From NCBI GenBank assembly GCA_031763025.1, contig JASSKH010000031.1:1922001-1986000 (forward strand): a stretch of DNA of 64,000 nt, written 5' to 3'. The translations under genes were made by a program, and so were the position numbers. Below, one piece after another: positions 3,945 through 53,429 of the stretch. The number at the start of each line of letters is the position of its first letter. Positions within the stretch are counted from its first letter, which is position 1. Under the pieces are notes generated by a model. The model was not told where the DNA came from. It made no database searches and saw only the letters and a program-made list of their open reading frames with translations. The stretch is from Macrocystis pyrifera (Eukaryota; Sar; Phaeophyceae; Laminariales; Laminariaceae).

Positions 3945-3989
3945 CTGTAGACGGCGGCGGGGGGGGGGTAGAGGTAAGGGTTGGGGGGG

Positions 3990-9929: not shown

Positions 9930-10255
9930 AGTGCTGGTATAGTATAGATAGTATATATAGCATTGTACTGGTATAGCCTATAGTACGAGTATACTATATA
10001 GTATAGTACTGGTATAGTACATACCACACTGTACCCAAATATTGCGACCATTTGTATATTAAGAATAAATGAAAACGTTTTTCAATTTTTATGAACAAAG
10101 TATTAATGGTAGCGCCTAAATTTTATAGGTATAGTACTGGTATAGTACATACCACCCTGTACGAAAATATAGGGACGATTAGCATACTGATAATAAATGA
10201 AAACGTTCCTCACATGTACGAACAGACTGGTAGCGTCCAAAGTTTCCGAGGCCTC
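9930..10255. repeat. AT-rich tandem duplication
   Basis: After a GGTATAGTATAG-rich lead-in (9935-10020), two ~125 bp diverged direct copies follow at about 10002-10128 and 10130-10250. Both begin GTATAGTACTGGTATAGTAC, share AATAAATGAAAACGTT and end with GGTAGCG.CC.AA. Confidence 0.7.
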
Positions 10256-10524
10256 TCGCGCACTTAACGAGCTCTATCAAGCACCCAACTATTATTTTTC
10301 GAAAGTCCCGGTGAGATATAAGCGACACCCCCCGGCACGCAATCTCATGTGTTGCTGGTAAATCATAGTAACTAATACTGCAAAACACACAAACCAGGTA
10401 TACCAGTACATCAGATCCAACGATATTGGGTACACATGCACCTCCTCGGGTTGCAATGGTTGATGCCATGGTTGAGGACCCTCCCTCCGTCCGTGAGAAG
10501 CGCTATTTAGGCTGGAAAATAAAG

Positions 10525-10655
10525 TGTTACCCCTAATCGCAATCGCTAATTGCAACCCCTGATTGTAACCCCTAACCGGATTCCTTAATTACAATCCCTC
10601 CTTGAAACCCCTACTTGAAACCCCTAACAGCAATCCCTAAGAACAATCCCTACCG
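10525..10655. repeat. AACCCCTAA-like short tandem repeat
   Basis: Degenerate ~15 bp units centred on CAACCCCTAATTGC repeat about eight times. It resembles a telomere-like motif only superficially, because the register varies. Confidence 0.6.
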
Positions 10656-10762
10656 TATCACACCGTCGCTTCCTTTCGAGGGGGTAGCGTATGTACGAAG
10701 TAGTCGCAGGGAAGGAGCGCTGACAAGGGACTGCCTGGTACAATATAATAATTCGCCTTTGC

Positions 10763-10796
<34 letters not shown>

Positions 10797-11335
10797 TATA
10801 TACATAGGTTGGGTCGGCAATTGTTGGCAGCGACACTGTGGAACATGCCGCTCACTACGTGAGCTAGACAACCAGGGTACCGTTTCTTTCTTCCTTTTCT
10901 TTTCTTTTGGCGGTCGCCCACAGCTAGTCGTCGAGTTAGATCGTTTGTGCGAGGTGAACAACCTTTACTCCGCACAGGGGAATTGATCGTATCGCGTAGT
11001 GTTCATGGTATGGCACCCACGGGGCAGTTGTATAGTACTCCCATCGCTGTCTCTGGAAGTGGCTACACCGGAAATTAAATCAACCCAGTGAAGCTATCAT
11101 CCATATGCAAGTCCCGCCTCACAAGCGGTTCTTAGTATTAATAGAATACAGGTCACCCTTCATGCGACTCGCCGGACACCTCACGGCGCTTCGCGCTTGG
11201 TGCAAGTAATGTCTACCTGGTCGGTGAAAACCCGACATGCTCCGTCCCGGCACTATAGGGATACGAGGGTCTATGGTCATACGGCTACGGCCATGCATGA
11301 GATCAAGTACATATCTCCTATCGAGTACACCCCCC
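10763..11335 (+). mobile_element. C-tailed SINE-like element, copy C (near full length)
   Basis: It starts after a ~30 nt C-run (10763-10793) with TAATATATACATAGGTTGGG. All family blocks are present in order: GCTCACTACGTGAGC, T-run, GGCGGTCGCCCACAGC, CATTGCTGTCTCTGG, AAGCGGTTCTTAGTA, the hairpin series and GGCCATGCATGAGATCAAG. It ends TCGAGTACACCCCCCC. The tail belongs to a variant with an extra TACATATCTCCTATC insert, shared with the copies at 49.4 and 54.1 kb. Confidence 0.75.
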
Positions 11336-11923
11336 CAACCGAGTGAGCAGCATGCAAACAGCAGTGGAAACCCCTTCTAAAAAAGAGGGGTGCATGAAGC
11401 GGGGCGTGGGAGGCGTGGGGGCGGGGGGGGGGGGGCTGATTCATCGAACGTAATTACTAAACATGGTGCGACAGCGCAGCACACTAGCGTAGCTACCAGC
11501 TGTGAAACGCGGTACCCCTCTGGTCATGAATATAGAGAACGGTTAGGCATCAATATGAGTCATAAACGGTCTTTATATTTCCGTCGAGAGTGGTGTAGCA
11601 TAGCTGTCGCGAGGCATTCGCGCGTATTTGTAACCGTCGTCACCCTGTGTGCGGTGCTTGACTCTCGGAGACTCTGGACGCAATTATAACGACCGTTTGA
11701 TCACCATCTCAATGTTGCAACGCTGCTTATCTTTCTGTCCAGAACGGTGTAAATTAATCTGCAGGTCGACGGTTGTACGCAGGTTCATTCGGCTCCAGCC
11801 ATCTCGAAAGAGGGGAGGGGGTCTACTTTGGCGCCTTCAAAAACTACAGTAAACCACAAAGAAAGCTCGCACTCGCCCGTACTACTGTAAAAAAGGAATC
11901 AAAAGCTTCCGTTATCTGCTCAC

Positions 11924-12054
11924 GTCTTTCTTGGTCATATCGCACAGCCCCGTGTACACGTCCCGAGGCTTGGGGGAGGGGACAAGGTCCACCGGAGCCC
12001 ACCCTTTAGCGTCAATCTGGAGAGCCACGTAGTGCCGAAAGCCATTGAACGAGC
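11924..12054 (-). pseudogene. T7/mitochondrial-type RNA polymerase exon D, array copy 1
   Basis: The exon is 131 bp. Its acceptor follows a pyrimidine-rich stretch and ends CGCGCGGCAG; the donor is GAC|GTGAGC. Two bases plus 43 codons read GSFNGFRHYVALQ (the first Gly comes from the junction), then GWAPVDLV and PKPRDVYTG. In single-subunit phage-type polymerases the palm motif A reads roughly HQDGSCNGLQHYAALG, followed by VNL, then P.DVY, and this exon follows that order. With exon B it rebuilds the motif across a phase-1 intron. Copy 1 keeps GS where copies 2 and 3 have GL. I call it a pseudogene because upstream and downstream exons of the gene are not found next to it. Confidence 0.72.
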
Positions 12055-12165
12055 CTGCCGCGCGAGGCAACAAAACAGGCAGCGAGATAGGGGGAGGGGA
12101 GGGGTATCGATGCTTTGAGCGTTTCGTGGTCACTGACCCTATAGTGTAACCGTAAACCGATACTA

Positions 12166-12270
12166 TTACGGGGGACCATAGTAAATAGGACCAAATATTG
12201 TTATTGAAAACAGGTAAATAGATAGGTTTTTGTCTGTACGGTAGGTCCTATTTACTATGATCCCCCGTAA
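12166..12270. mobile_element. TTACGGGGG-type MITE (array copy 1)
   Basis: Inverted ends TTACGGGGGACCATAGTAAA at both sides, with flanking TA on each side. It lies in the intron between polymerase exons B and D. Confidence 0.88.
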
Positions 12271-12469
12271 TAAGTATTTTGTACAGCAGCCGTGCGCTTT
12301 TCTCCTTTTCTCCGAGCGAGTGTTTATTTCGTTGTTGGTGTTTAGGGCTGTAGTCCCTTCAGTGTTTCCCTTTTGTTTTCCTTCCAAGAGCATTTTAACC
12401 TGTTTTTGCGGCCATCAATACAGTTTAAAAAAACTAAAGGATTTTGGTGAATTAGTGTGAGCATACCAA

Positions 12470-12592
12470 CAACACCATTAACAGCAACAACAACAACAAC
12501 AACAGCAACCATAACACCAACATTAAACCACCAACAACAGCAACAGCAGCAGCAGCAACAAAAACACCAACAACAACAGCAACAACACTCTG
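12470..12592. repeat. CAA/CAG tract (array copy 1)
   Basis: Interrupted (CAA)n/(CAG)n, with the same counterpart at 19450-19585 and 24790-24925. It lies in the B-D intron. ORFs through it are Gln/Thr runs or, in reverse, Val/Cys runs and are not taken as genes. Confidence 0.8.
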
Positions 12593-13010
12593 TATTATGT
12601 TCAACGTGTGCAGCGTTTTTAGAGCGACCTCCCTACACGCTTTCGTGCAAGCCTTCTCATCCTCTGTCGTGATATAATAGGGTAAAAGTTCCTACGTGGC
12701 AAACGCAAAAAAAAAATACGATCGTGACAGTTGTAGAAAATGGTGTCAAGTCACGTTGTGTAAAAAAGCAAGAATCACAACCACGCCCGGTTTTGTCACG
12801 AAGACATGATATCAATTACTGTACGAGTAGGGTATTATTGTTTCTTGATTTCGTTCAAAGTTGAAGAATTTCATCGTCGCGATTCCGTCACAAATATACG
12901 CAAATATCACCACGATTCGTGATAGCAAAATATCGCAAATAGATCAAATATTTTCCTTCATCGAAAAAACTTCGTGGCCACCAATTTGGTCGTGTAGGAA
13001 TGACCCTCAC

Positions 13011-13167
13011 CGTCCTGGTGCACCGGAAGAGGCAAGAAGTACTGAGAAAGGTCGTGGAAAACGAGGGCCACCGTGAGGTCCTGGCATACCGCTGGGCACT
13101 GCCAAGGGTGTCCCGCTCCCATCAACCACCGGTCGCCATCCAGCGGTCGAAAGGCCCTGTCTCGAAT
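13011..13167 (-). pseudogene. T7/mitochondrial-type RNA polymerase exon B, array copy 1
   Basis: The exon is 157 bp: 52 open codons plus one base. Its acceptor is CGTCGTTGTCGATAG and its donor GACG|GTGAGG. The reading begins IRDRAFRPLDGDRWLMGAGH, continues PWQC.AVCQDL and ends LPLPVHQD. In mitochondrial and plastid phage-type RNA polymerases the segment before motif A has the pattern PL.G.RWW..A..PWQ.LA...EL and then HLPVHQDG, which this matches closely. The final Asp corresponds to the catalytic metal-binding Asp of motif A. The last base plus the two first bases of exon D give the expected Gly. Family knowledge is from memory. Confidence 0.74.
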
Positions 13168-13199
13168 CTATCGACAACGACGGGTTAAAGGTATAAGGG

Positions 13200-13372
13200 C
13201 ACGATTCGATACGATACGATACGATACGATACGGTGAGGTAGGATAGGATAGGATAGGATAGGGTAGGGAAGGACAGGGTAGGGTAGGGTAGGGTAGGGA
13301 AGGGTAGGACAGGGTAGGGTAGGGTAGGGTAGGGAAGGGAAGGGAAAGGCAGGGTAGGTAGGTGGGGTTAGA
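13200..13372. repeat. GATAC / TAGGA / TAGGG pentanucleotide minisatellite (copy 1)
   Basis: A run of CGATA pentamers passes into TAGGA and then TAGGG pentamers with occasional AAGGG. It sits just upstream (minus-strand sense) of polymerase exon B. Counterparts: 20190-20345 and 25534-25668. The repeat is five bases, so it is not the TTTAGGG telomere repeat. Confidence 0.85.
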
Positions 13373-14085
13373 GTTAGGGCCAGTGTTCGCGGAAATACGA
13401 TGTTTCAGGAGTGTGAACAATAAATGTATTACGAAGTTGTTTGTAAAAGGTTAGGGCAGAGCAGTAGCTACGGCATTGTAGCTTTCATTGCTTCCTTTTG
13501 ATATCGACCACAAAAAACCGAGGAACCGAAAATTGATGTCTTCTTCAAAATATGACGAAAGCGCCTACTTTCGTTTGGATCCAACTACGTACCCAGTCTC
13601 GACCCAACGCAAAAAATGCGGAAAAATTTAAACCGCTCACGGCTTTGTACGATGTCATTTTTTACCCAAATATCCGCAACTAATTGCTCGCCCCTCCCCT
13701 GCCCGCCCAAAGCCGTGCCTGCCCCCCCGCCTCCCCGCCACTCCCGCCCCGCTCCCTCCCTGCCCCTCTCCCTCCCACTCCCATCCCCCGCCTGCCCTCT
13801 CTCCCCCCCTCGTTCGCCAAGGGGTCCACATTCGGGGGGTGGTCAAAACAAGAAAAAAAGCGACTATGGCAACAACGGCGTCAATCAACCATGCAAGCAA
13901 TCCGCAGCTGGACTTAGCAATGTACTACCTCTCCGGCCTGCCCCGTCCTTGGGGTGGGCCGAGGAAGCCCGCAAGGACTTACAGCGGTCTAGCAGCAGCC
14001 ACACGAGCATCGAGCCTCGGGCTGGGTAGAGAGGGAACCTCGCGCGGTCTGGCGAGTGAACTGTTCACTCTAAGGACCGCGCGGG

Positions 14086-15160
14086 GTGGTGGTGATGAGT
14101 TTTATTTTTAACCCGGATGCCGAGGAGTTCATCCCCGAGAGGCAGGACGGGTACATCACCACAGCAGAGAGCGCTGCGTGGGCAACCTGGGGAGAGGAGA
14201 GGCTGGCCACCGCGTGGGTACGCAAGCGCGACAGGAAGGATGGGGGTGTCGGAGTTGGCTGGGACGGCTGCACCCAACCAACGGAAACCAAGGCGCGAAC
14301 CGGGCTACAAAGCGGAGAGCCAATATTATCATAGAGAAAAAGAAGAGACAAAAAAAGCAAAAAAGGAGGAGGGGACGAGTCTCTCGTCGGCTGGCAAAAA
14401 AAGCAGCACGCGAGGCTCGTAAGAGGCGGAAGGCGGCACTTGTGGTGGTAGCGACCTACAATGTGCGTACCCTGGCCGTAAAGGGGAAGAACGGGTACGG
14501 GCATGACGAGTGCGTACTTGCGAAAGGACGGAAACTCGGTTGTGACTTCATTGGTCTGCAGGAAACCCGACGGTCCGGCAACACGAGATTTCGTGCAGCT
14601 GGATACCAAGTTTTTTGTTCAGGTCAGGAAAAAACAGCAGCGAGACAATGGTTGTATGGGGTAGGTTTAGCAGTAAAAGACTCAATATGCCGTACGTCTA
14701 AGTTCACTCAGCAGTTTATTGACGAACGACTTATGTCTATGCGCTTTGAGTTGGACGGTCGGTGCGATGCGGTTAATTTCGTCGTTGCGTACGCCCCAAC
14801 TGATTGTACCAAAGACTCCAAGCAGAAAGGCATGTTCTGGCGAAAGTTGGAGGACATGGTTGAGCAGATTCCTGCTAAAGAGTGTTTGTTTGTGCTTATA
14901 GATGCCAATGGGCGAACTGGGGGGAGGATAGAAGGGTGCAGTGATGATGAATGTAGGGTGCTCGGAGTATACGGACGAGATGTTCGTAGTGATAACGGCA
15001 AACGGCTTTTGTCGTTCGCTACCAGTTGCAAGCTAGCGCTCACCAACACATTTTTCAGCACGCGCAAGGGCGGAATATCGCATACATACAACGGCACCAG
15101 CCTGAATGATCGTAAGCGAATCGACTACATCCTAACTCGTCAAGCAGAGTACATAATGTT
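14086..15160 (+). pseudogene. LINE leader ORF and APE-type endonuclease domain
   Basis: A reading from an ATG at 14095 (MSFIFNPDAEEFIPERQDGY) is overtaken in another frame by a very basic stretch (KKKRQKKQKRRRGRV, about 14330). The endonuclease follows: VVATYNVRTL (Asn of the first motif), FIGLQETRRSG (catalytic Glu), VVAYAPTD, VLIDANGRTG (catalytic Asp/Asn) and RIDYIL. After a frame change near 15158, the last motif SDHNIV (Asp-His) appears in the next frame at about 15195-15212. All main catalytic residues of an AP-endonuclease-like LINE nuclease can be seen. It would nick the target DNA to prime reverse transcription. Confidence 0.82.
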
Positions 15161-16587
15161 ACAGTCGTCCCACAGCCCCCACCACCTGCTAAGGCTGATT
15201 CAGACCATAACATCGTGTACATCAAGGCCCGACTTAGTGGTCACTTTTCGTCTAACCGAAGATTGCTGAAACCCCCAAAACGCCGAGAATTCGACAGGCA
15301 GCTTTTCTTATCCGATGGAGAGCGTCGACACCGAATAGTCGAGAGGGTCGTTTCCACTCTTAACCAACCTACCCAGCCTCGTAACACGTCTGGCATGGTT
15401 GAGTTTTTCACCACAACTGTCATGAATGCTGTTGAGAAAGAGGTGCCACCTCCACCACGTCGCCACCACCGAAACGGTTGGTGTGAGACCCCCGAAACGG
15501 TGGCCGCTTTCAAAGTAGCATGGACAGCGAGGGAGGATGCGAGACAGCTCTTGCGTGTCTACCCCCGAGATAGTACAGCGTAGAAGAAGTTGAGATCCGC
15601 CTGTGCGAATCTGCAGGAAGTGGTCGCCGCAGGAGTCAACGCGTATTTTGAAGAGTACCTCGCTGAAACCGAGAAATTCCTCGCGAGTTCCGATCAACGA
15701 GGGTTCTACAAGCACCTGAAGAGTACGGTAGGGTTGCAAGGTACGAAAGCGAGGAGTGAACAGTTTATCATGGACGAGGATGGCGCGCTGTTGCGGGATC
15801 AAGCGCGAATTCGTGAAAGATGGGCGGGGCACTACCACAAACTATTGAACACGAAATCGCTGAAACTTGACCCCACGATCATCAACCTAGTGCCACCACG
15901 ACCGCTGAAACTATCCCTTGGAAATGAACCATCCATTGACGAGATGATGGAAGCAGTGAAGGGTATGTCAAACTGGAAAGCCGTTGGACCAGATGGTCTC
16001 CCGGTCGAAGTATTGAAACTTGACCACCCCGCTTTCGTGCAGTATTTTCACAGTATCCTTGTTAACGTTTGGGTAACGGGAGAAGTCCCCCAGCAATGGA
16101 AAGATGCGATCATAAAAACCCTTCATAAAAAGAAGGATAGAACTGATTGCAACAACTACAGAGGTATTTCGCTTGTTGCTCACGCAGGCAAGGTGTTGCT
16201 GAAAATCGTTGCGTCCCGTCTAAGCAGCTACTGCGAGACCGAGCATATACTCCCTGAAGAACAGTGCGGCTTCCGCCCCGCACGGTCAACAGTCGATATA
16301 CTGTTTGTCGTGCGCCGGTTGCAGCAGCTCGGGCGGCAGAAGAAAATCCCCCTGTACATGTGCTTCATCGACTTGCAGAAAGCGTACGACTCTGTCGACC
16401 GAGAACTGTTGTGGGAGGTACTCACACGCCTTGGTGTACCAACCAAGATGCTCACAATCATTCGCAATTTTCACGAAGGCATGCGGGCTCGCGTGCGTGC
16501 GGATGACGGTGAACACTCGGACTGGTTCAATGTAACCCAGGGGCTGCGGCAAGGCTGCGTACTATCGCCGTTACTGTTCAACGTGTC
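15161..16587 (+). pseudogene. LINE reverse transcriptase, fingers and palm part 1
   Basis: One frame is open except for a TAG at 15581-15583. Recognisable RT blocks in order: [18 protein letters not shown] (block 1), [20 protein letters not shown] then YRGISL (block 2), [14 protein letters not shown] (block 3), [17 protein letters not shown] (block 4, with the first catalytic Asp) and [15 protein letters not shown] (block 5). The frame then changes near 16587. The blocks suit a non-LTR RT of the APE lineage; I do not assign a clade. Confidence 0.86.
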
Positions 16588-16848
16588 TTCGCCGCTGCGA
16601 TACACATCGTGCTGGTACGCCTCAGCAAAGACGAATGCATCGTAAGGGATTTGGTTCATCTCGAAGAGGACAGGGTTGTCGGAAAAGAGGAACCGTTGGC
16701 ATGCGTGCAAAGGGCTGTGTGGGGCATGTTGTATGCAGACGATGCAGGAATAGTCTCGAAGTCGGCGGAAGGCCTTGCAAGAATGATGACAGTCATCGTG
16801 ACTGTCTTCGAAGCAGTAGGTCTCACGGTATCTGAGAAGAAGACAGAC
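16588..16848 (+). pseudogene. LINE reverse transcriptase, YADD block
   Basis: The next frame carries [16 protein letters not shown], an insert, then GMLYADDAGIVS, the catalytic YADD box (two Asp), and VFEAVGLTVSEKKT. A further frame change occurs near 16848. No residue of the catalytic triad is lost, so inactivation is only through frameshifts and the stop. Confidence 0.85.
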
Positions 16849-17809
16849 GATGCTCCTACGAACACCGGATCAGACGTTTACCACCTCACCGCTCGCGATT
16901 GAAGCTGCAGGCCAAAAGTATAAACAGACGACCCAGTTTTTGTACCTAGGAGGCATTATCCACGAGAACGCTGACCTCTCCTTCGAAATCGAGCGACGAA
17001 TCCGTCTGATGCGGGCATGCCTCAAACGGTATGGTCCGGAACTGTACGATAGGACGAACGCACCGCTTAGTCTGAAAGTCCGGATGCTGAAGGCCGAGGT
17101 GAATGAGACCTTGCTGTACGGTTGCGTGACGTGGACCCTCAATGCGGACCACTTCGCCAAGCTTCGATCAGCCCACCACGAAGTCCTTCTGCGAGTCATT
17201 GGTTTCCAGCGCCGACTACGCACCGACCACACCACCCTCTCGTATGCGAAGGCGCTCAGGATAACACGATGCGAAAGTATCGAAACGACCATCCGTAAAC
17301 GGCGACTCTTCTTTGCGGGGGCTGTGGTGCGGCAACACGAGGGGCGATTGCCCAGTCGGTTGATGTTCGGGACGATCGCTGGTGGGGGGAGCCCGAAACC
17401 AGGCGGGCAGCCCAAGACTTGGCCTAGGGCCATTGCTGAGGACCTTAGAGTGTTCAAAGCCATCGAGGGATCAACGGAAGACTCCCCCTTAGTCTTTGGA
17501 GTTGGGACCGCACTGTGGCCCACTGCAGCAAAACAGACGGGAAAGTGGTACCGGGGAATCCTCGAAGCAGCTGAACAGTTCATGGGCGGGTGGCACGAGG
17601 CTGAGGCAAAGCTGAGTAGACAGCGCCGTGCATCCGCTGCAGGTAGTGTTAGAGGGAATGGGGGGAGGGGTAACAGCAGGAGGGGTAGAAGGAACACCGT
17701 ACAAGTGTATGGGGGCAGGGGGGGGAACAGGAGGAGTAGAAGGGAAACCGCGGTAGAAGAGAGTAGCAGAGAGACCGCAGATAGGGTAGCAAGGTACCAG
17801 GCCGACTAA
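16849..17809 (+). pseudogene. LINE thumb and C-terminal region
   Basis: The open reading resumes with MLLRTPDQTF, continues QFLYLGGIIHEN, then RRIRLMRACLKRYGPELYD, LLYGCVTWTL and RKRRLFFAGAVVRQHEGRLP. It ends with a Gly/Arg-rich tail and ETADRVARYQAD-stop at 17809. The LYLG and LLYGCVTW pieces are common behind the YADD box in many LINEs, with the R-rich tail probably binding RNA. The same ending is found, reversed, at 34.87-34.92 kb. Confidence 0.84.
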
Positions 17810-18922
17810 TAGGTTGGACTTTTCTTTGCTAGTCGTACCGCCAACTGCTGCGGCCGTTCGGTATGCATTTTGATTTTTCTCCCTTCTTATCCTTATGAAA
17901 GAAGTACTACATAGTGGATGGGTGACGAGCGTATTTTGGCCCACTCACTATTGCTCTTTTTACTTAGTTAAGTGTTCACCGGGATGCATAGTCCCCTTTT
18001 TCCTTCTCGTATCTTTCCCCTTGCACGTCCCTTTTGGCTCATGCTCGGGGTAAGTATGTATGTTTCTGAGCTTTGGCTTCCCATTTTACTTATTTATTTG
18101 GGATTCTTCTCCTTTTCTTTTTCTTTTTCTTGTTCTTTTTCGGTTTGGTTTCTTCGTTGCTTCTCTTTCTTCATGATGTATTTTGGTTGCTGGCGTATGT
18201 ATGTATGTTGTGTCGGCCGCACCTAGTGCGAAGGCATGGTATTGCGTAGGCTATTAATGCATTACGGTGTGTTATCTCTGTGTCGTAGTCTGTGACCACA
18301 GAGCTCGTATCTTTATAGGGTGAAGAATCAGCACGGACACTGGGCTTGCTGGATGTCGACGAGTAGAAGAACGGTTTAATGTGAAGAACACACACACACT
18401 TGCATACGACTTGGTTCGTCTTCAAAAACGAAAAACGTTCAAGCGTACGTTTAAGCTCGTAGTGCGCATCGACTCTCATCACATACTCATTCCGAGAAAG
18501 TTCCCAGGAGCGCTCGGGATTAGCGCTACAGTTGGAGACAGTTTTAGGGAATGTTTACTGTCACGCTTTTATGTCAAACCAACTTGTCATAGCATAGATG
18601 CCGCGAGGGATTCGCGCATATTTGTAACCGTCGTCACCCTGTGTGCGGTGCTTGACTCTCGGAGACTCTGGACGCAATTATAACGACCGTTTGATCACCA
18701 TATCAATGTTGCAACGTTGCTTATTTTTCTGTCCAGAACGGTGTATATTAATCTGCAGGTCGACCGTCGTACGCAGGTTCATTCGGCTCCAGCCATCTCG
18801 AAAGAGGGGAGGGGGTCCCTATTTCTTTGGCGCCTTCAAAAACTACAGTAAACCACAAAGAAAGCTCGCACTCGCCCGTACTACTGTAAAAAAGGAATCA
18901 AAAGCTTCCGTTCTCTGCTCAC

Positions 18923-19053
18923 GTCTTTCTTGGTCATATCGCACAGCCCCGTGTACACGTCCCGAGGCTTGGGGGAGGGGACGAGGTCCACCGGAGCCCA
19001 CCCTTTAGCGTCAATCTGGAGAGCCACGTAGTGCTGAAAGTCATTCAACAAGC
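18923..19053 (-). pseudogene. T7/mitochondrial-type RNA polymerase exon D, array copy 2
   Basis: The exon has the same limits and phase as in copy 1. It reads LLNDFQHYVALQ, keeping the QHY of the family motif better than the other copies but with N-D for N-G. The rest matches copy 1 and the donor GTGAGC is intact. Confidence 0.7.
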
Positions 19054-19158
19054 CTGCCGCGCGAGGCAACAGGCAGCGAGATAGGGAGGGGGGGGGTATC
19101 GATGCTTAGAGCGTTTCGTGGTCACTGACCCTATAGTGTAGCCGTAAACCGATACTAT

Positions 19159-19262
19159 ACCGGGGGACCATAGTAAATAGGACCCAATATTGTTGTTGAA
19201 AATAAGTAAATATATAGGTTTTTGTCTGCGCCGTAGGTCCTATTTACTATGGTCCCTCGTGA
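19159..19262. mobile_element. TTACGGGGG-type MITE (array copy 2)
   Basis: Same insertion as at 12166, with slightly eroded ends (CCGGGGGACC and GGTCCCTCGT). Confidence 0.85.
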
Positions 19263-19997
19263 TAAGTATTTTGTACAGCAGCCGTGCGCTTTTCTCCGAG
19301 CGAGTGCTTATTTCGTTTTTGGTGTTTAGGGCTGTAGTCCCTTCAGTGTTTCCCTTTGGTTTTCCTTCCAAGGGCATCTTAACCTGTTCTTGCGGCCATC
19401 AATACACTTTAAAAAAACTAAAGGATTTTGGTGAATTAATGTGAGCATAACAACAACACCATTAACAGCAACAACAACAACAGCAGCAACCATAACACCA
19501 ACATTAAACCACCAACAACAGCAACAGCAGCAGCAGCAACAAAAACACCAACAACACCACCATAAAACAACAACAGCAACAACACTCTGTATTATGTTCG
19601 ACGTGTGCAGCGTTTTTAGAGCGACCTCCCTACACGCTTTCGTGCAACCCTTCTCATCCTCTGTCGCGATATAGTAGGGTAAAAGCTCCTGGTACGTGAC
19701 AAACGCAAGAAAAAATACGCTCATGACCAGTTGTAGAAAATGGTGCCAAGTCACGTTGTGTAAAAAAACAAAAATCACGCCCTGTTTTGTCACGAAGACA
19801 TGCTATCAATTACTGTACGAGTAGGATATTATTGTTTCTTGATTTCGTTCAAACTTGAAGAATTTCATCGTCACGGTTCCGTCACAAATAAACGCAAATA
19901 TCACCACGATTCGTGATAGCAAAAATATCGCAAAAATAATTCCTTCATCGCGAAAACTTCGTGGCCAACAATTTGTTCGTGTAGGAATGACCCTCAC

Positions 19998-20154
19998 CGT
20001 CCTGGTGCACCGGAAGAGTCAAGAGGTACTGAGAAAGGCCGTGGAAAACGAGGGCCACCGTGAGGTCCTGGCATACGGCTAGGCACTGCCAAGGGTGGCC
20101 CGCTCCCATCAACCACCGGTCGCCATCCAGCGGTCGAAAGGCCCTGTCTCGAAT
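19998..20154 (-). pseudogene. T7/mitochondrial-type RNA polymerase exon B, array copy 2
   Basis: The exon is 157 bp, open, with acceptor and donor as in copy 1. Substitutions near the end give FHGLSQYLLTLPVHQD; the catalytic Asp position is kept. Confidence 0.72.
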
Positions 20155-20189
20155 CTATCGACAACGACGTGTTAAAGGTATGAGGGCAC

Positions 20190-20345
20190 GATGCGATACG
20201 ATACGATACGATACGATACGATACGGTGAGGTAGGATAGGATAGGGTAGGGTAGGGTAGGGTAGGGAAGGGAAGGGTAGGGTAGGGAAGGACAGGGTAGG
20301 GTAGGGTAGGGTAGGGTAGGGTAGGGAAGGGTAGGTAGGTGGGGT
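20190..20345. repeat. GATAC / TAGGG minisatellite (copy 2)
   Basis: Pentamer array in the same place as in copy 1, with a different repeat count and order. Confidence 0.85.
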
Positions 20346-20879
20346 TAGAGTTAGGGCCAGTGTTCGCGGAAATATGATGTTCCAGGAGTGTGAAAAAAAA
20401 TAAATGTTATTGTCCTCGATGAAATGCATTCGAGCGCTGTTCTCAGTTTGCTTGTCTCTTTTTTTGTGAAGTCGCAGGTGGAGTTGTTGAGAGTGGCGGG
20501 AGAGGTCAGTCGGGACCAGCACAGACGGAACACAAGAGTGCTGTGTTTGGCTCAGGCAGAGCGTCTACTTGCTGACTATCGGTACCACTTGTTATAGTAC
20601 TCGGCGGGGACATATATCGAGCAGCAACACAAGAAGACGGCACGAGCACCCGCACCAGTACCACAGCAATGGGATCGATATCATTGAGATGTAATTGGGG
20701 TTGCAGGGCAAAATACAAGACTGTTGGCCAATGAAAAACGAAACATGAACGGGGAGAGATCTCCAACAATCAGTCAGAAAGCTGACGACGCTCTCTTGGC
20801 CAAAGCAAAACATGTCCGTTGTTTATTACAACAAGTAAACGACAGATTGACAAGAGATCTCTGTACCGCGAAATAGTTG

Positions 20880-22500
20880 CTGTTGGCGAAATGAGAACTG
20901 AGGTGCATGCATGCTCTACGGGGCGAGAGCTTGCCGCTGGCGCCCTACGGTATGCTCCCAAACCTGAAAAAAACATTTTTTGTTGTGTGTTGTTACACAT
21001 TCGACAGATTGACGTATTTTCAACTGCCGGGTTATTATCTTTGCGAGTACCGAAACATACGATGAGGATCGCAAAATACAAATAAAGGCGAAAAGTAGAA
21101 AGTAATCACCTAACTGCTGTTGTTGTAAAAGACCTACGATAGTTCGTATGCATTTTTTTAGTAGTAGTAGTTTTCAGGCTCTACTGCTGCTATAGTATGC
21201 GAATGACGACGCTTTGTTGGCCAACGAAAAACATTTTATGGGTTGTTACACATTCGACAGATTGACATGTATTTTCAACTGGCGGGTTATTATATGCGAG
21301 CACCGAAACATACGATGACGATCGCAAACAAATAAAGGCGAAAAGTAGAAGGTAATCCACTGCTGCCGGCGGCGTCCTACGGTATCTCCCCAAAACCTGA
21401 AAAAAAAACATGTTTTGCCTTTCGCTGCTGTAAAAGACCTGCGATAGTATGCAATTTTTGCCATTCGAGACACAGTAGTACTCGTAGATGATTTTGCTGT
21501 GGCACAAAAAGGAACCCACTCCTGTTGTTGTACTGCTGTAAAAGACCTGCTATAGTATGCGAATGGAAACGCGAAGTACACCAAAAAAGAATTATTTCAG
21601 CTCGTGCCACGATACACGATCGACACTCGATCTCGACAGAGATTCAGCCCACGGACAACCCGCGCGGTGGCGGGCAAAATCAACTAGTATAGATGACGGG
21701 CTCGAAGGAATGAGGTGGATGCATGCTCTAGGGGGCAAGAGCTTGCCGGCGGCGTCCAACAGTATCCTCCCAAAACTGAAAAAAACCCATTTTTTGCCAT
21801 TCGAGACGTTTGTTGTACTGATGTACTGATAGACGAAATTCGTTTTTTTGCCATTCTGTTATGGTGCTGCTTGGATACAGCACTCTGCAGTACAGCAGTA
21901 CTCGTAGATAATTTTGCTGTGACACAAAAAGTAACCCACTCCTGTTGTACTGTAAAAGACCTGCTATAGGATGCGAATGGAAACGTAAAGTACACCAAAA
22001 AAGTATTATTTCAGCTCGTGCCACGATACACGATAGACGCTCGATCTCGACAGAGACTCAGCCCACGGGCAACCCGCGCGATGGCGGTCAAGATTAACTA
22101 GAATAGATGACGGGCTCGAAGAAATGACGTGGATGCATGCTCTAGGGGGCAAGAACTTGCCGGCGGCGTCCAACGATATCCTCCCAAACCTGAAAATAAG
22201 CCCATTTTTGCCATTCGACACGTTTGTTGTACTGCTCTAAAAGACCTGCTCGTGCGACGATAGACGATAGACGTTTATTGCACAGTAACTGTAAAGACCT
22301 GCTCGTGCGACGATACACACAATGATAGACGCTCGATCTCGACAGAGACTCAGCCCACGGGCAACCCGCTCGGTGGCGGGAAAGATCAACTAGTATAGAT
22401 GACGGGCTCGAAGAAATGACGTGGATGCATGCTCTAGGGGGCAAGAGCTTGCCGGCGGCGTCCTACGGTATCCTCCCAAACCTGAAAAAAAGCCCATTTA
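20880..22500. repeat. Degenerate tandem repeat of ~300-450 bp units
   Basis: About five units carry GGATGCATGCTCTAGGGGGC, GCCGGCGGCGTCC, CCCAAACCTGAAAAAA, CTGTAAAAGACCTGCTATAG and CTCGATCTCGACAGAGACTC in that order. The later units (21.5-22.5 kb) are the most alike. ORFs on the minus strand (for example GRISLDAAGKFLPPRACI) merely follow the repeat. Confidence 0.75.
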
Positions 22501-22605
22501 TTGCCATTCGAGACGGATGCAGCAGTAGTAGTACTCGTAGCTAATGTTTTTCATCTATTTCGTGCACACCAGCGGCCAATGCGCTGCACTGAGCGTGGGA
22601 CCCAA

Positions 22606-22829
22606 GCGTCTGAGCCAACTCCTACTCTTGTATCCATCGCCACCCTGGCAAAACAAGACAGCACTACAACAGTAGCAGGCACCGGGTCGGGTGTATAAAA
22701 GTCTCCCCAACTCGGTATGGGCGTCTGAGCCAACTCTTGTATTGATCGCCACCTTTGCAGAACAAGGCGGCACTCCAGCAGTAGCAGGCACCCGGTCTGG
22801 TGTATAGCCGGCTCCCCAACTCGGTATGG
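22606..22829. repeat. Two-copy tandem repeat of ~111 bp
   Basis: Both copies run from GCGTCTGAGCCAACTC to CCCCAACTCGGTATGG and include AGTAGCAGGCACC.GGTC.GG. They are about 85% alike by eye. Confidence 0.8.
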
Positions 22830-23065
22830 GACATGGGATATGTTGGTGGTATGGTATATGGGAATATGGGAATATGGGATATGTTGGTGGTATGGTACAT
22901 GGGAATATGGGAAAACCACCGTATGTGGTATGGTATGTGTTGACGGTATGGTACGGGAAAAACACAGTATAAGGTATGGTACGTTTGTGGTATGGTACCA
23001 TGGCACGATGTCGTGGATGTATTATATGGCTAAATTTGCCTGGTGGTATGGTATGTTTCAGTATA
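22830..23065. repeat. GGTATGGTA-based minisatellite
   Basis: Repeats of TATGTTGGTGGTATGGTA and GGGAATATGGGA, degenerating rightwards. No gene. Confidence 0.75.
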
Positions 23066-24238
23066 TAAGGTCCGTAAGGGTCGAAAACGTCGTACGAATA
23101 TCATCTGTAACGAGCTTATATACCGGCCATTGGAAAGTGTTCGAAAATAAAGGCCTTGCCGAAAGACAGACAGACAGACACACAGATTTGCATTTACCAA
23201 AACAGAGAGTCAGTGCTACAAACTGAGAATTACGAAGTTGTTTGTAAAAGGTTAGGGCAGAGCAGTAGCTACGGCATTGTAGCTTTCATTGCTTCCTTTT
23301 GATATCGACTACAAAAAACCGAGGGACCGAAAATTGCCGTCTTTTCAAAATATGACGAACGCGCCTACCTTCGTTTGGACCCAACTACGTACCCAGTCTC
23401 GACCCAACGCAAAAATGTGGAAAAATTTAAACCGCTCACGGCTTTGCACGATGTCATCTTTTACCCACAATATCCGCAACTAATCGCTCGCGCCCCCCCT
23501 GCCCGCCCAACGCCGTGCCTACCCCCCCCCCCTTCCCCCCGCTCCCGCCCCGCTCCCTCCCTGCCCCTCTCCCTCCCACTCCCACCCCCCGTCTGGCCTC
23601 CCTCCCCCCCTCGTTCGCCAAGAGGTCCACATTCGGGGGGTGGTCAAAACAAGAAAAAAACGAGTATGGCAACAACGGCGTCAATCAATCATGTAAACAA
23701 TCCGCAGCTGGACTTAGCAATGTACTTGCATACGACTTGGTTCGTCTTCAAAAACGAAAAACGTTCAAGCGTACGTTTAAGCTCGTAGTGCGCATCGACT
23801 CTCATTACATACTCATTCCGAGAAAGTTCCCAGGAGCGCTCGGGATTAGCGCTGGAGTTGGAGACAGTTTTAGGGAATGTTTACGGTCACGCTTTTATGT
23901 CAAACCAACTTGTCATAGCATAGCTGTCGCGAGGAATTTGTAACCGTCGTCACCCTGTGTGCGCTGCTTGACTCTCGGAGACTCTGGACGCAATTATAAC
24001 GACCGTTTGATCACCATATCAATGTTGCAACGTTGCTTATTTTTCTGTCCAGAACGGTGTATATTAATCTGCAGGTCGACCGTCGTACGCAGGTTCATTC
24101 GGCTCCAGCCATCTCGAAAGAGGGGAGGGGGTCCCTATTTCTTTGGCGCCTTCAAAAACTACAGTAAACCACAAAGAAAGCTCGCACTCGCCCGTACTAC
24201 TGTAAAAAAGGAATCAAAAGCTTCCGTTATCTGCTCAC

Positions 24239-24369
24239 GTCTTTCTTGGTCATATCGCACAGCCCCGTGTACACGTCCCGAGGCTTGGGGGAGCGGACGA
24301 GGTCCACCGGAGCCCACCCTTTACCGTTAATCTGGAGAGCCACGTAGTTCCGAAAGCCATTCAACAAGC
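24239..24369 (-). pseudogene. T7/mitochondrial-type RNA polymerase exon D, array copy 3
   Basis: 131 bp, same acceptor, donor and phase. It reads LLNGFRNYVALQINGKGWAP and PKPRDVYTGLCDM. The His of the QHY-like position is Asn here, a change expected to be harmful in an active enzyme. Confidence 0.72.
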
Positions 24370-24478
24370 CTGCCGCGCGAGGCAACAAAACAGGCGGCGA
24401 GATAGGGGGAGGGGAGGGGTATCGATGCTTTGAGCGTTTCGTGGTCACTGACCCTATAGTGTAGCCGTAAACCGATAC

Positions 24479-24595
24479 TATTACGGGGGGTCATAGTAAA
24501 TACGAACAAATATTGTTAGTGAAAATACAGTAGTAAACATATACCAGGTAGGTTTTTGTCCGTACCGTAGTCCTATTTACTATGGTCCCCCGTGA
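24479..24595. mobile_element. TTACGGGGG-type MITE (array copy 3)
   Basis: Left end TTACGGGGGGTCATAGTAAA and right end TTTACTATGGTCCCCCGT. The middle is ~10 bp longer than in copy 1. Confidence 0.84.
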
Positions 24596-25340
24596 TAAGT
24601 ATTTTGTACAGCAGCCGTGCGCTTTTCTCCTTTTTCTCCGAGCGAGTGCTTATTTCGTTGTTGGTGTTTAGGGCTGTAGTCCCTTCAGTGTTTCCCTTTT
24701 GTTTTCCTTCCAAGAGCATTTTAACCTGTTTTTGCGGCCATCAATACACTTTAAAAAAACTAAAGGATTTTGGTGAATTAGTGTGAGCATAGCAACAACA
24801 CCATTAACAGCAACAACAACAGCAACAGCAGCAACCATAACACCAACATTAAACCACCAACAACAGCAACAGCAGCAGCAGCAACAAAAACACCAACAAC
24901 ACCACCATAAAACAACAACAGCAACAACACTCTGTATTATGTTCGACGTGTGCAGCGTTTTTAGAGCGACCTCCCTACACGCTTTCGTGCAACCCTTCTC
25001 ATCCTCTGTTGCGTCATAATAGGGTAAAAGCTCCTGGTACGTGACAAACGCAAAAAAAAATACGATCGTGACAGTTGTAGAAAATGGGGTCAAGTCACGT
25101 TGTGTAAAAAACGAAAATCACGCCCGGTTTTGTCACGAAGACATGCTATCAATTACTGTACGAGTAGGGTATTATTGTTTCTTGATTTCGCTCAAAGTTG
25201 AAGAATTTCATCGTCACGATTCCGTCACAAATATACGCAAATATCACCACGATGCGTGGTAGCAAAATATCGCAAAAAATAATTCCTTCATCGCGAAAAC
25301 TTCGTGGCCAACAATTTGTTCGTGTAGGAATGACCCTCAC

Positions 25341-25497
25341 CGTCCTGGTGCACCGGAAGAGGCAAGCGGTACTGAGAAAGGTCGTGGAAAACGAGGGCTA
25401 CCGTGAGGTCCTGGCATACGGCTAGGCACTGCCAAGGGTGGCCCGCTCCCATCAACCACCGGTCGCCATCCAGCGGTCGAAAGGCCCTGTCTCGAAT
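25341..25497 (-). pseudogene. T7/mitochondrial-type RNA polymerase exon B, array copy 3
   Basis: 157 bp, open, with intact splice sites. It reads GDRWLMGAGHPWQCLAVCQD and LSQYRLPLPVHQD. Its PWQCLAVC segment is closest to the remembered family pattern PWQCLAAC. On the minus strand, exons A (upstream) and E (downstream) of a complete gene would be expected outside 24.2-25.5 kb but were not found within the unit. Confidence 0.74.
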
Positions 25498-25533
25498 CTA
25501 TCGACAACGACGGGTGAGAGGTATAAGGGCACG

Positions 25534-25668
25534 ATGCGATACGATACGATACGATACGATACGATACGGTGACGTAGGATAGGATAGGGTAGGGTAGGGT
25601 AGGGAAGGACAGGGTAGGGTAGGGTAGGACAGGGTAGGGTAGGGTAGGGTAGGCAGGTGGGGTTAGAG
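25534..25668. repeat. GATAC / TAGGG minisatellite (copy 3)
   Basis: Third counterpart of the pentamer array upstream of exon B, shorter than copies 1 and 2. Confidence 0.85.
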
Positions 25669-26411
25669 TTAGGGCCAGTGTTCGCGTAAATATGATGTTC
25701 CAGGAGTGTGAAACATAAATGTATTACGAAGTTGTTTGTAAAAGGTTAGGGCAGAGCAGTAGCTATGGCATTGTAGCTTTCATTGCTTCCTTTTGATATC
25801 GACTACAAAAAACCGAGGGACCGAAAATTGCCGTCTTCTTCAAAATATGACGAAAGCGCCTACTTTCGTTTGGATCCAACTACGTACCCAGTCTCGACCC
25901 AACGCAAAAAATGCGGAAAAATTTAAACCGCTCACGGCTTTGCACGATGTCATCTTTTACCCACAATATCCGCAACTAATTGCTCGCTCCCCCCCCTGCC
26001 CGCCCAAAGCCGTGCCTACCCCCCCCTTCCGCTCCGCTCCCGCCCCGCTCCCTCCCTGCCCCTCTCCCTCCCACTCCCATCCCCCGCCTGGCCTCCCTCC
26101 CCCCCTCGTTTGCCAAGAGGTCTACATTCGGGGGGTGGTCAAAACAAGAAAAAAAGCGACTATGGCGACAACGGCGTCAATCTACCATGTAAACAATCCG
26201 CAGCTGGACTTAGCAACGTATTTGCATACGACTTGGCTCGTCGTCAAAAACGAAAAAAAGTTCAAGGGGGTTTTTTGCTCGTAGTGCGCATCGACTCTCA
26301 TTACATACTCATTCCGAGAAAGTTCCCAGGAGCGCTCGGGATTGGCGCTAGAGCTAGAGACAGTTTTGGGCAATGTTTACGGTCAGGTTTTTATGCCAAA
26401 CGAGCTTGTCA

Positions 26412-26889
26412 CAGCCGGGCTAACGTCTATGCGACCCTGCCCTGCCCTGCCCTACCCTACCCTACCCTACCCTACCCTACCCTACCCTACCCTACCCTAC
26501 CCCCTACCCTACCCTGCCCTACCGTAAGTTCACCCGGGACACGCGACTCGCGACACGCACCACATAGAGCGTAACGAAACAGCACAAAATAGCACGTACC
26601 ACTTACACCTCCTACCTGTATCTGGATGTCGTTGGCCTTGATCTAAGTAAGGCAGATACCACGCAAACAAACGGACAGGGTGAGGGTAGGGGGAGGAAAG
26701 AAGGAAGGGACGGAGGGAGGGAGGGAAATTTTACGGGGGAGAGCAAAGTAGACATATTATGCGACATGGCAAGGGTGGAGAGAGAGCAGGCAGCGTTGTG
26801 GCACGGTAAGGAAAAGGTAAGTTGCAGCAAGTACCAGGGAGGCGATGGTGGGCCGGCACAGCACGGGCAAAAGCTGCAAGGACAGGAAG
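26412..26889. repeat. CCCTA pentamer run and purine-rich flank at the array end
   Basis: A (CCCTA)n run occupies 26437-26522, the opposite strand orientation of the TAGGG arrays inside the units. After it comes a GGAGGGAGGGAGGG-rich stretch (26680-26730) and sequence with no supported exon. Confidence 0.7.
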
Positions 26890-27225
26890 GGGGATCGACG
26901 ATTGATATAATCCATCAGCCCATCCATATTGCCCAAAATGTATCCATCAACCAATCAATATTGTCCAACTCTGTCGATTTGCCAATCAATATAGTCCAAA
27001 TCTGTCCATCAACCAATCAATTTTGTCCAAACTCTGTCCATCAACTCATCGAAATTGTCCAAAATGTGTCCATCAACCAATCAATATTGTCCAACTCTGT
27101 CGATTTGCCAATCAATATAGTCCAAATCTGTCCATCAACCAATCAATTTTGTCAAAGCTCTGTCCATCAACTCATCGAAATTGTCAAAAATCTGTCCATC
27201 AACCAACCAATCATGTCCAAATTAT
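26890..27225. repeat. ~31 bp minisatellite with a ~125 bp higher-order period
   Basis: The base unit is close to CCATCAACCAATCAATATTG plus TCCAAATCTGT. Four variants make a ~125 bp block that occurs twice (26935-27060 and 27061-27185) almost unchanged. It translates as an INQSILSN-type repeat, which is not taken as a gene. The same unit occurs reversed at 30370-30480 and 30655-30700. Confidence 0.8.
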
Positions 27226-28510: not shown

Positions 28511-28603
28511 CTCATGAGCTGTCCGGGGTGTGGAATTATATCTATCAAGGAAACGGTCCACTGATCGATCACGGCCAGTCAGCCAAGGACGGAATCAACT
28601 CAC

Positions 28604-29041
28604 CTATGAGGTAGTGAGCCAACCCTGTCGACCTAAACCAGAAATCAACCCACCCATAGGATTGATAGACCACAAAAGAAAATCTAAAAATCTAGACTCA
28701 AACCTATTAAAAGTTAAAAACGTGTACGTATCTCCTGGCTTTCCCTCCGTATCTTCTATCCTTCCCCCAATCACCGACAACGCCGAGGATGCAACGCCCA
28801 CGTTAAGCACAGCGACGACCAGAAACAAAAGAAACTGAAGATCACACTGAAGAACACACTGCACCCCTGTTTCTACCTGAGCATATATTTTGATAACCTT
28901 TGCAGTACCAGATGGATGCATACACACAACCCCCTCCAATCCCCCCCAGTCCACCACAGCCTGCGCCGAGACGACAAGCACCCCATGAAGCATCACTACC
29001 AGCGACAACAAAAAAGATTGCGTGAAAAGCGAGCACCACAA
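28604..29041 (-). CDS. ORF with two signal-peptide-like segments (left arm)
   Basis: An open reading of 145 residues, without a confident ATG at its start (first ATG inside at about 28989). It contains two similar hydrophobic blocks, FLLSLVVMLHGVLVVSAQA and FLLFLVVAVLNVGVASSALS. Each is followed by a short GG(L/R)E stretch, which suggests tandem duplication of a secretory leader-like exon. The matching right-arm sequence is broken up. It could be spurious, since no splice pair was fixed. Confidence 0.28.
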   Translation of the reverse strand: MWCSLFTQSFLLSLVVMLHGVLVVSAQAVVDWGGLEGVVCMHPSGTAKVIKIYAQVETGVQCVLQCDLQFLLFLVVAVLNVGVASSALSVIGGRIEDTEGKPGDTYTFLTFNRFESRFLDFLLWSINPMGGLISGLGRQGWLTTS

Positions 29042-29118
29042 AACAAGTAACCCTCTCTTGCTCCCCCCCCCCCCCCCCCCCTCCTCCTCACCCCACCCTA
29101 CACATGAAAATCAATCAC

Positions 29119-29300
29119 CTTATCCACGATTCGCTTGTAACCATAGTGCGTCCGCTGCCTTCTCTTGTCCGCTCTCTCCTCCTCCTTGCTCTCGTCCCCA
29201 ACCTTTCACGGCAGCGGCACGAGCTTGCCCTTCTCGCCCGCCTCCACCTCCACCTCCTCGGGCGGCGGCGGCAGCGGGGGCAGCGGCAGGTTCTCTCCGT
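29119..29300 (-). pseudogene. Charged exon, left-arm copy, with a stop
   Basis: Mirror of the exon at 29290-29472. It reads VGDESKEEERADKRRQRTHY then GYKRIVDK|GTGATT at the donor. Relative to the right arm, CCGAGG has become CCGTGA, giving a stop at 29206-29208. Its upstream part is acidic (EEVEVEAGEKGKLVPLP). Confidence 0.45.
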
Positions 29301-29472
29301 CGGCAAGGACCTGCCGCTGCCGCTGCCGCCCGAGAAGGTGGAAGTGGAGGCGGACGAGAAGGGCAAGCTCGTGCCGCTGCCGAGGAAGGTTGGGGACGAG
29401 AGCAAGGAGGAGGAGAGAGCGGACAAGAGAAGGCGACGGACGCACTATGGCTGCAAGCGAATCGTCGAAAAG
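29290..29472 (+). CDS. Charged exon, right-arm copy of inverted repeat 2
   Basis: The exon is 183 bp, 61 codons, phase 0. Acceptor GGCAGCGGCAG, donor AAAG|GTGATT. The reading goes from VLSVGKDLPLPLPPEKVEVE through KLVPLPRKVGDESKEEERAD to a basic end RRRRTHYGCKRIVEK. Family unrecognised. The acceptor lies within the palindrome centre, so the exon begin may be an accident of the inversion; the true 5' neighbour is lost. Confidence 0.42.
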
Positions 29473-29678
29473 GTGATTTTATTTGTATGTCTGGGGTGGG
29501 CTGAGGAGGAGAGGGGGAGAGGGGGGAGGGGGGAGGACGAGGACGAGGAGGAGGAGGAGGAGGAGGAGGAGGAGGAGGAGGTTCGTTTTCTGGTGCTCAA
29601 TTTTCACGCAACCTTTTATCGTCGCCGGTATTGATGCTTCATGGGGGTTTGTTGTCTCGACGAAGGCTGTGGTGGACT

Positions 29679-31472: not shown

Positions 31473-32134
31473 GCACCATCAAGACTACTGCTGTACTACT
31501 TATATAGCTGACGCTGGTTTGTCTCTGTGGTTGGTGATTGCGTTGGTAATTTAGTCGCCCCGGCGGCCAAGGTAAACCTAGTGGGCAGGACGAAGGAGAG
31601 GAATGAGGCGAAGCCGCTGCCCCCCGTCAGCAATCGCAGACACGTACGAGAGGTATGGTGCGGCTGTGCATGCGTGCGTGCGTGTGCGCTCTTTACGGCT
31701 TGTTTTCGCCGCTGGTTTGATGCAGCAGTACTGCTACGTACTGCCAATATTGCTTTTGCAAATACTTTTACGGCTGTTGTTGTTGCTACTACCGCTGCTG
31801 CTGCTGCTGCTGCTGCTATTGCGACGCACTGATGTGCTACTATTTATGCTACTACTTCAGTGTTCCCTGTGTATGTTCACCATTTTTAATACGCCAAGTT
31901 TTCTGCTGCTGAGCTAGTGCTGCTGTGCTACATACTACTACCACTGCTAGCAGTCTATTACTGTAGAGTGTGTCGAGGGGCCGTGCGCGAAGGCAAAGCC
32001 TCCAGCTATTTTGCATCCACCCACGCGTTGGTATCCTGTTTGCGTTCGATTCGTTTCGTTCCTTCTGCTCATAATAATAATATTTTTTTCTTTCTCATCC
32101 GTTCTAGGTTTTTCGTTTTCCACACACCCACCAG
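31473..32134. other. Intergenic or intronic stretch with CTG repeats
   Basis: Contains (CTG)n at about 31790-31820 and T-rich sequence before the acceptor at 32134. Upstream exons of the polymerase-like gene were looked for here and not found. Confidence 0.4.
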
Positions 32135-32413
32135 GTGAACAACAAAGAGCAGGATGCCCTCGGCATGCTCGAGCACACCGACTGGCCCATCGGGGCCCAA
32201 GTCAAGCTCGGAGCTGCATGGGTAAAACTTATCATAGAGACGGCAACCTGGGCGCACGACGAGAGCATTGGGGGCTTTTCCGGACTAGAGCCATGGGAAG
32301 GGACAGGGGGAAGGACTTCGACGGGCATGCCGCGAGCGGCTTTCGTTCTCCAAGTCGTCATGTGCATGTGCGAGCGCAAGCAGCAGCGGGGGACCCTTTC
32401 GCTGCCCCCCAAG
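32135..32413 (+). CDS. Exon resembling the N-terminal part of a T7/mitochondrial-type RNA polymerase
   Basis: The exon is 279 bp, 93 codons, phase 0 to 0, with acceptor TTTTCCACACACCCACCAG and donor AAG|GTATAC. The reading includes EHTDWPIGAQVKLGAAWVKL then IIETATW, a Gly-rich insert, and PRAAFVLQVVMCMCERKQQR followed by GTLSLPPK. Nuclear-encoded phage-type polymerases have before the palm a segment of the form W....R.KLGA.L...L.ETA ... PAF.H......K..G, which this resembles; the match is moderate and from memory. It lies on the strand opposite to the motif-A exons at 12-25 kb, so the two cannot be spliced together as they stand. No further polymerase exon (for example the YFPHN or WLKIHLAN segments) was found downstream. 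Confidence 0.5.
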
Positions 32414-53425: not shown

Positions 53426-53429
53426 GAAC

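What the first reader, a model, noticed from the sequence alone, without database searches (positions are those of the whole stretch)
11597..26411. Triplicated catalytic-core exons of a T7/mitochondrial-type RNA polymerase
Two minus-strand exons (157 and 131 bp) occur in three ~2.5 kb tandem copies. Spliced together they rebuild the motif-A region (LPVHQDG then N.F.HYVALQ). Splice sites and the phase-1 junction are preserved in all three copies, though no other exon of the gene lies in the unit. Either this is a fragment captured and amplified as a satellite-like unit, or it is part of a long gene whose core exons were multiplied. Copy-specific changes at conserved positions (GS/GL, QHY/RNY) argue for relaxed selection.
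Basis: partly seen in the sequence, partly recalled or inferred. Interest (0 to 1): 0.82.

Follow-up and report, generated by a model that had tools for sequence, protein, structure and literature searches.

The report
Decayed kelp mitochondrial polymerase gene copy
A broken, partial copy of the giant-kelp gene for the mitochondrial RNA polymerase lies here, in which one two-exon stretch was later copied three times in a row; it looks like an ordinary unprocessed pseudogene, and what appears to be the working gene sits on another scaffold.

Summary
The 157-nt and 131-nt minus-strand exons occur three times, all open, with 12 of 12 AG/GT dinucleotides intact; copy 1 hits Pfam RNA_pol at 1e-25. 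Size and contig count fit the giant kelp (Macrocystis pyrifera) assembly. A gene for the same single-subunit RNA polymerase, open in every exon modelled, lies on another scaffold. The window matches it at DNA level, introns included, so this is an unprocessed partial duplicate, not a retrocopy or a satellite.

They include an upstream exon remnant (a stop in one arm, an inverted second arm), another exon with 27 nt deleted, and an inverted N-terminal exon. Exons Ea, Eb and everything after Ed were not found. Three 2.5-kb tandem units fill 11,596-26,415, split by a LINE and another insert. Amino-acid changes fall 22 on the copy lineage against 1 on the parent's; 16 of 44 invariant positions are broken.

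Best reading: a decayed partial paralogue with a late local triplication. The lack of indels in these exons hints that the frame was protected for a time. Novelty is low.

The parts
11596..26415 (-). Array of three tandem ~2.5-kb units (period ~2,496), interrupted by two later insertions
   Evidence: Self-BLAST joins 11596-13924 = 23916-26220, 13428-13926 = 23229-23726, 18400-18593 = 26222-26415; junction sequences
13011..13167 (-). Exon Ec, copy 1 (157 nt; ends ...LPVHQD|G)
11924..12054 (-). Exon Ed, copy 1 (131 nt; GSFNGFRHYVALQ...)
19998..20154 (-). Exon Ec, copy 2
18923..19053 (-). Exon Ed, copy 2 (GLLNDFQHY)
25341..25497 (-). Exon Ec, copy 3
24239..24369 (-). Exon Ed, copy 3 (GLLNGFRNY)
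13925..18397 (+). LINE-type retrotransposon insertion splitting the array (endonuclease and reverse-transcriptase ORFs in separate frames); ends good to a few bases
   Evidence: Pfam Exo_endo_phos 1.9e-6 and RVT_1 1.4e-24; the third ORF tested had no hit; uninterrupted equivalent site in copy 3
20408..23228 (.). Second insertion splitting the array, with internal repeats; not classified
10657..11595 (-). Continuation of the duplicated Ed-Ee intron beyond the array, split by a repeat at 10761-11336, ending about 160 nt before where exon Ee would be; the outermost piece (10657-10732) is a weak match on its own
   Evidence: 11331-11508 at 1.4e-17, 10657-10732 at 1.2e-4; same order in the fragment at C213:1875456; repeat
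26452..27008 (-). Duplicated intron/exon segment, 69% to parent; holds the remnant (about 26616-26642) of the 18-codon exon IKTKNANMHSLRCDMQIK with 27 nt missing in two in-frame gaps
28547..28937 (-). Duplicated intron segment, 67% to parent
29063..29303 (-). Remnant of upstream exon up3: acceptor and roughly the first 26 of 86 codons not recovered, in-frame TGA at about 29208-29206
29293..29475 (+). Inverted second arm of exon up3 (palindrome with the minus arm), open from its truncated start
31530..32876 (+). Inverted N-terminal part of the duplicate, colinear with the parent in three pieces (32016-32444 75%, 32434-32672 74%, 32724-32876 72%) plus 31530-31685 at 81%
32135..32425 (+). N-terminal exon (about 97 codons, open, CAG acceptor kept); the donor that is GT in the parent is GC here
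   Evidence: tblastn 1e-28 from 32132; Pfam RPOL_N only 15.9 bits, below its cut-off of 30.1; splice context

Best explanation
This is a decayed, partial, unprocessed duplicate (pseudogene) of the kelp nuclear gene for the mitochondrial single-subunit RNA polymerase. Shown: a gene open in all modelled exons lies on scaffold C204; pieces of its genomic DNA, introns included, from upstream of the N-terminal exon to just before exon Ee, occur here in rearranged and incomplete form; the Ec-intron-Ed block forms three tandem 2.5-kb units; a LINE and a second insert split the array; exon Ea, exon Eb, the second modelled N-terminal exon and the exons after Ed were not found. Inferred: the order of events (duplication, loss of constraint, palindrome and inversion near up3, local tandem triplication probably by unequal exchange, insertions) and the absence of a function today.
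For: Parent exons with GT-AG sites and catalytic exons on C204. Window introns match parent introns at 67-75%. Two further exon remnants and an N-terminal exon in the same window. PF00940 in the genome: 10 matches, 5 on C204 and 5 in this array, with profile positions beyond about 140 only on C204. In-frame stop and lost start of up3; 27-nt loss in the KTKN...LRC exon. Of 96 positions, 22 changes lie on the copy lineage and 1 on the parent lineage, counted where four brown-algal outgroups agree; 16 of 44 positions invariant in the parent plus 10 other proteins are changed in at least one copy. dN/dS 0.52, 0.63 and 0.67 against the parent; 0.80, 0.69 and 2.8 among copies on few changes. Among copies the exons differ by 3.5-4.5%, the intron between them by 4.5-5.7%, the 5' flank by 5.3-12.0% and the 3' flank by 1.5-3.7%.
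Against: All six core exons stay open and all 12 splice dinucleotides are kept. The exons have 0 indels against the parent in all three copies, where flanking introns have 16, 7 and 18 events over 554, 236 and 566 sites; at half the flank rate the chance of none is 0.010-0.016. The copies share ancestry, so this is essentially one test, low-complexity flanks inflate the rate, and with cheaper gaps 6, 2 and 4 length-neutral exon indels appear against 24, 12 and 29 in flanks. Exon divergence from the parent (0.19-0.21) is below flank divergence (0.28-0.30), though part of that is constraint on the parent. The N-terminal exon is open too, so the duplicate was probably a coding gene for some time.
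Confidence: 0.87

Rival explanations
1. Exon-cassette gene: the Ec+Ed pair is phase-symmetric (288 nt, starts and ends in phase 0), so the three pairs can be spliced in frame into a 288-residue triple repeat of the motif-A region, expressed as a new protein.
For: All six exons open, splice dinucleotides kept, an in-frame concatemer of 288 codons without a stop exists, no exon indels. Tandem in-phase exon cassettes are described in brown-algal ROCO genes (PMC11378527, passages).
Against: No sign of constraint on amino acids among copies (8, 8 and 9 of 96 residues differ on 11, 13 and 10 nucleotide changes); conserved positions broken; no transcript data were available. I did not search for a new start exon or promoter.
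Confidence: 0.05
2. Part of a second, full-length working RPOT paralogue whose remaining exons lie outside the window or in gaps.
For: Frames of several exons are open; dN/dS to parent below 1.
Against: The whole-genome PF00940 search finds the downstream catalytic exons only on C204; tblastn of C213:1856001-1996000 finds no Ea, Eb, Ee or later exon, though that search used a low-complexity filter and also missed the up3 remnants; the upstream exon has a stop and lost its start.
Confidence: 0.03
3. Satellite-like or transposon-captured fragment that spreads on its own.
For: Three tandem copies; many repeats and a LINE nearby.
Against: In one search the unit is returned only here and, diverged, at the parent, plus one broken 3' fragment at C213:1875456-1876580 (extended). 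Most other hits are one ~120-nt repeat inside the unit.
Confidence: 0.04
4. Assembly artefact (falsely duplicated sequence).
For: A three-copy repeat could be mis-assembled.
Against: Copies differ by 7-9% in BLAST identity, have private indels and are separated by different insertions, so they are distinct sequences.
Confidence: 0.01

Closest known systems
Unprocessed (duplicated) pseudogenes
   Same: Intron-bearing, partial, with a stop, deletions, transposon insertion and relaxed amino-acid evolution
   Different: One internal exon pair was afterwards multiplied threefold in tandem, with frames still open
Mitochondrial single-subunit RNA polymerase (RPOT/POLRMT/Rpo41)
   Same: Sequence homology over the motif-A region; the parent gene is a clear relative (PDB 6ymv E=1.7e-76; Ectocarpus protein P0125, 68%)
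   Different: No exons for the rest of the catalytic domain were found here, so the window locus should not encode a polymerase
Tandem LRR exon cassettes of brown-algal ROCO genes (PMC11378527; passages read)
   Same: Tandem repetition of phase-symmetric exon units inside a gene
   Different: Per that paper those exons are alternatively spliced and under diversifying selection; here the host gene is broken
RpoT gene family of land plants (PMC3022604, PMC3895441; only the search listing and start of abstract seen)
   Same: Duplication of a mitochondrial RpoT gene
   Different: Plant duplicates gave rise to further organelle polymerases; this one is partial and decayed

Membership tests
Single-subunit RNA polymerase (PF00940) | Significant match to the RNA_pol profile | tested here: met
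   Copy 1: 1e-25, 90.9 bits; whole-genome search rings for 5 of 6 window exons
Single-subunit RNA polymerase (PF00940) | Complete catalytic domain, including the exons after motif A | tested here: not met
   Profile positions beyond ~140 of 448 found only on C204; no such exon in the window or, with a filtered search, on C213:1856001-1996000
Single-subunit RNA polymerase (PF00940) | Conserved residues of the motif-A region (HQDGSCNGLQHY in relatives; its role as motif A is recalled) | tested here: not met
   HQDG kept in 3 of 3 copies; C of SCNG lost in 3 of 3; QHY kept in 1 of 3
Unprocessed pseudogene | Homology to parent extends into introns | tested here: met
   67-75% intron identity; further pieces
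Unprocessed pseudogene | Disabling lesions | tested here: met
   Stop in the minus arm of up3, exons not found, 27-nt exon loss
Unprocessed pseudogene | Neutral amino-acid evolution | tested here: inconclusive
   22 to 1 excess on copy lineage, but no exon indels and dN/dS to parent 0.52-0.67
Unprocessed pseudogene | No functional transcript | not testable with these tools
   No RNA data available
Satellite DNA | Many dispersed or long-array copies | tested here: not met
   Three units in one array returned by a capped whole-genome DNA search

The most novel reading that the evidence does not exclude
A broken polymerase gene has been recycled into a new short gene: the phase-symmetric Ec+Ed cassette, triplicated in tandem, is spliced in frame into a 288-residue triple repeat of the polymerase's motif-A region that no longer polymerises but is kept for another role.
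Probability: 0.04. Interest if true: 0.7.

Novelty: new member of a known kind. Interest (0 to 1): 0.22.

Why it matters
It explains a striking pattern (triplicated core exons of an essential enzyme) as gene duplication followed by decay and local tandem duplication, and gives a warning for annotation: automatic gene finders could join these open, well-spliced exons into false RNA-polymerase genes. If transcripts were found, it would be a test case for tandem exon cassettes arising from a dead gene.

Tried and rejected
Retrocopy: rejected, since introns are present and homologous. Phage or organelle origin: rejected, since the nearest named relatives of the parent are brown-algal proteins and introns are present. 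Exon Ee remnant in window 9500-11300 or at C213:1875900-1878400: none, score 22 in both against shuffled maxima of 32 and 33. Ea, Eb, Ee to Ei in the window: no hit better than E=0.19. Two further open frames of the parent region (up1, up2), tried as possible exons, hit several places in the window; I took them as repeats and did not use them. Rfam and tRNA scans of the window: 0 and 0. A first indel count with cheap gaps gave a weaker contrast than the stricter one, so that result depends on scoring. The whole-genome search with the parent protein did not complete, so fragments too diverged for the PF00940 or DNA searches may exist elsewhere. Literature: one search listed 1 paper (a review of organelle replication), one search listed 8 of 20, one search listed 8 of 1,403, one search listed 6 of 311; none of the listed titles concerns this locus, which is a weak negative.
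Full report
What was checked. Spliced, each pair gives 96 open codons; translated from its own first base the 131-nt exon runs into a stop, and its frame is seen only after splicing. All acceptors are AG and donors GT, 12 of 12. Copy 1 matches Pfam RNA_pol at 1e-25.

The genome and the parent. The window is C213:1922001-1986000 of an assembly of 537,376,219 bases in 223 contigs. This fits the published giant kelp assembly, 537 Mb in 35 scaffolds plus 188 contigs (PMC10498591, passages read); the identification is by these numbers and by the brown-algal relatives, not by a label. The parent gene lies on C204, minus strand, about 2,660,300-2,679,600 for the part modelled. Its exons Ea to Ef read through in frame and later catalytic exons are present. 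The exon between Ef and Eg was seen by tblastn but not put into my 677-aa model, and exons further upstream were not modelled, so 'intact' means open in all modelled exons. Its closest named relatives are brown-algal: Discosporangium 69% over 99% and Sphacelaria 81% over 56% of a 251-aa core; Pylaiella 69% and Ectocarpus 68% over the 677-aa model, after two unnamed proteins at 70%. By sequence all 16 matches in the PDB are mitochondrial or phage-type RNA polymerases, the mitochondrial ones best.

A DNA-level duplicate. The window copies match the parent not only in exons but in introns: 12997-13709 at 69.7% and 25327-26067 at 67.5% around Ec, 11918-12104 at 78.7% around Ed. Downstream, homology goes on past the array to about 10657, about 160 nt before where exon Ee would start; the last piece is weak (E=1.2e-4). 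The exons found in these pieces are an N-terminal exon (about 97 codons, inverted, donor now GC), exon up3 twice as a palindrome (minus arm with a TGA; in both arms roughly the first 26 of 86 codons are not recovered), and the KTKNANMHSLRC exon with 27 nt missing in frame. The second modelled N-terminal exon, Ea, Eb and everything from Ee on were not found in the window. On C213:1856001-1996000 they were not found either, but that search used a low-complexity filter and also missed the up3 remnants.

The array. Leaving out two inserts, the stretch 11596-26415 is three units of about 2.5 kb. The first insert is a LINE with endonuclease and reverse-transcriptase domains; the second was not classified. 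A whole-genome DNA search with one unit gave 59 matches: the array, the parent, a broken 3' fragment at C213:1875456, and mostly a short repeat inside the unit. It scored only 40 of 4,107 candidates. The fragment, 1875456-1876580, matches window stretches between 11909 and 10026 in four pieces at 76-82%, so it probably stems from the same duplicate.

Selection. Against the parent dN/dS is 0.52, 0.63 and 0.67 (NG86). Where four brown-algal outgroups agree, 22 amino-acid changes fall on the copy lineage and 1 on the parent lineage; positions where the outgroups disagree were left out. Of 44 positions invariant in the parent and 10 other proteins (P0094 covers only 53 of the 96 positions; two more lack a few at the ends), 16 are changed in at least one copy. 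Among copies the exons differ by 3.5-4.5%, against 4.5-5.7% in the intron, 5.3-12.0% in the 5' flank and 1.5-3.7% in the 3' flank, so there is no clear slowing of the exons. Simulated neutral change leaves no stop with probability 0.13-0.28 on the shared branch, depending on the number of changes, and 0.50-0.53 on the private branches. Against full neutrality, the exons have no indel where half the flank rate predicts 4.2-4.6, chance 0.010-0.016; with cheaper gaps the contrast is weaker. I read this as some protection of the frame early on, then loss.

Conclusion. The most likely history is duplication of a genomic piece of the polymerase gene, relaxed selection, breakage with an inverted repeat near exon up3, tandem triplication of the Ec-Ed block, and transposon insertions. 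Function today is unlikely. An in-frame cassette protein is possible on sequence alone, but nothing else here supports it.

Noticed in passing
window 14112-17809 (+): LINE-type element with endonuclease (Exo_endo_phos) and reverse-transcriptase (RVT_1) ORFs in separate frames, with an (AC)n stretch at its right junction
   Followed up: partly
window 28558-30375: Palindrome (28558-28954 against 30375-29994, 29113-29277 against 29314-29478) centred near 29295, inside the polymerase duplicate
   Followed up: partly
C213:1875456-1876580: Second, inverted fragment, probably of the same polymerase duplicate, starting near the last bases of exon Ed, about 45 kb left of the window
   Followed up: partly
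window 12163-12272, 19155-19264, 31363-31472: Short ~110-120-nt repeat with TATTACGGGGG-like ends, hit at more than 30 places in the genome; possibly a small DNA transposon
   Followed up: no
window 53429-53861: (CAT)n array of about 144 units, giving long poly-Met or poly-His open frames that could be mis-annotated as genes
   Followed up: no
window 1322-2038 (+) and 3357-4022 (-): Two inverted, similar charged open frames (LQRIEELERKLDIATGALE...), perhaps a transposon or gene family
   Followed up: no
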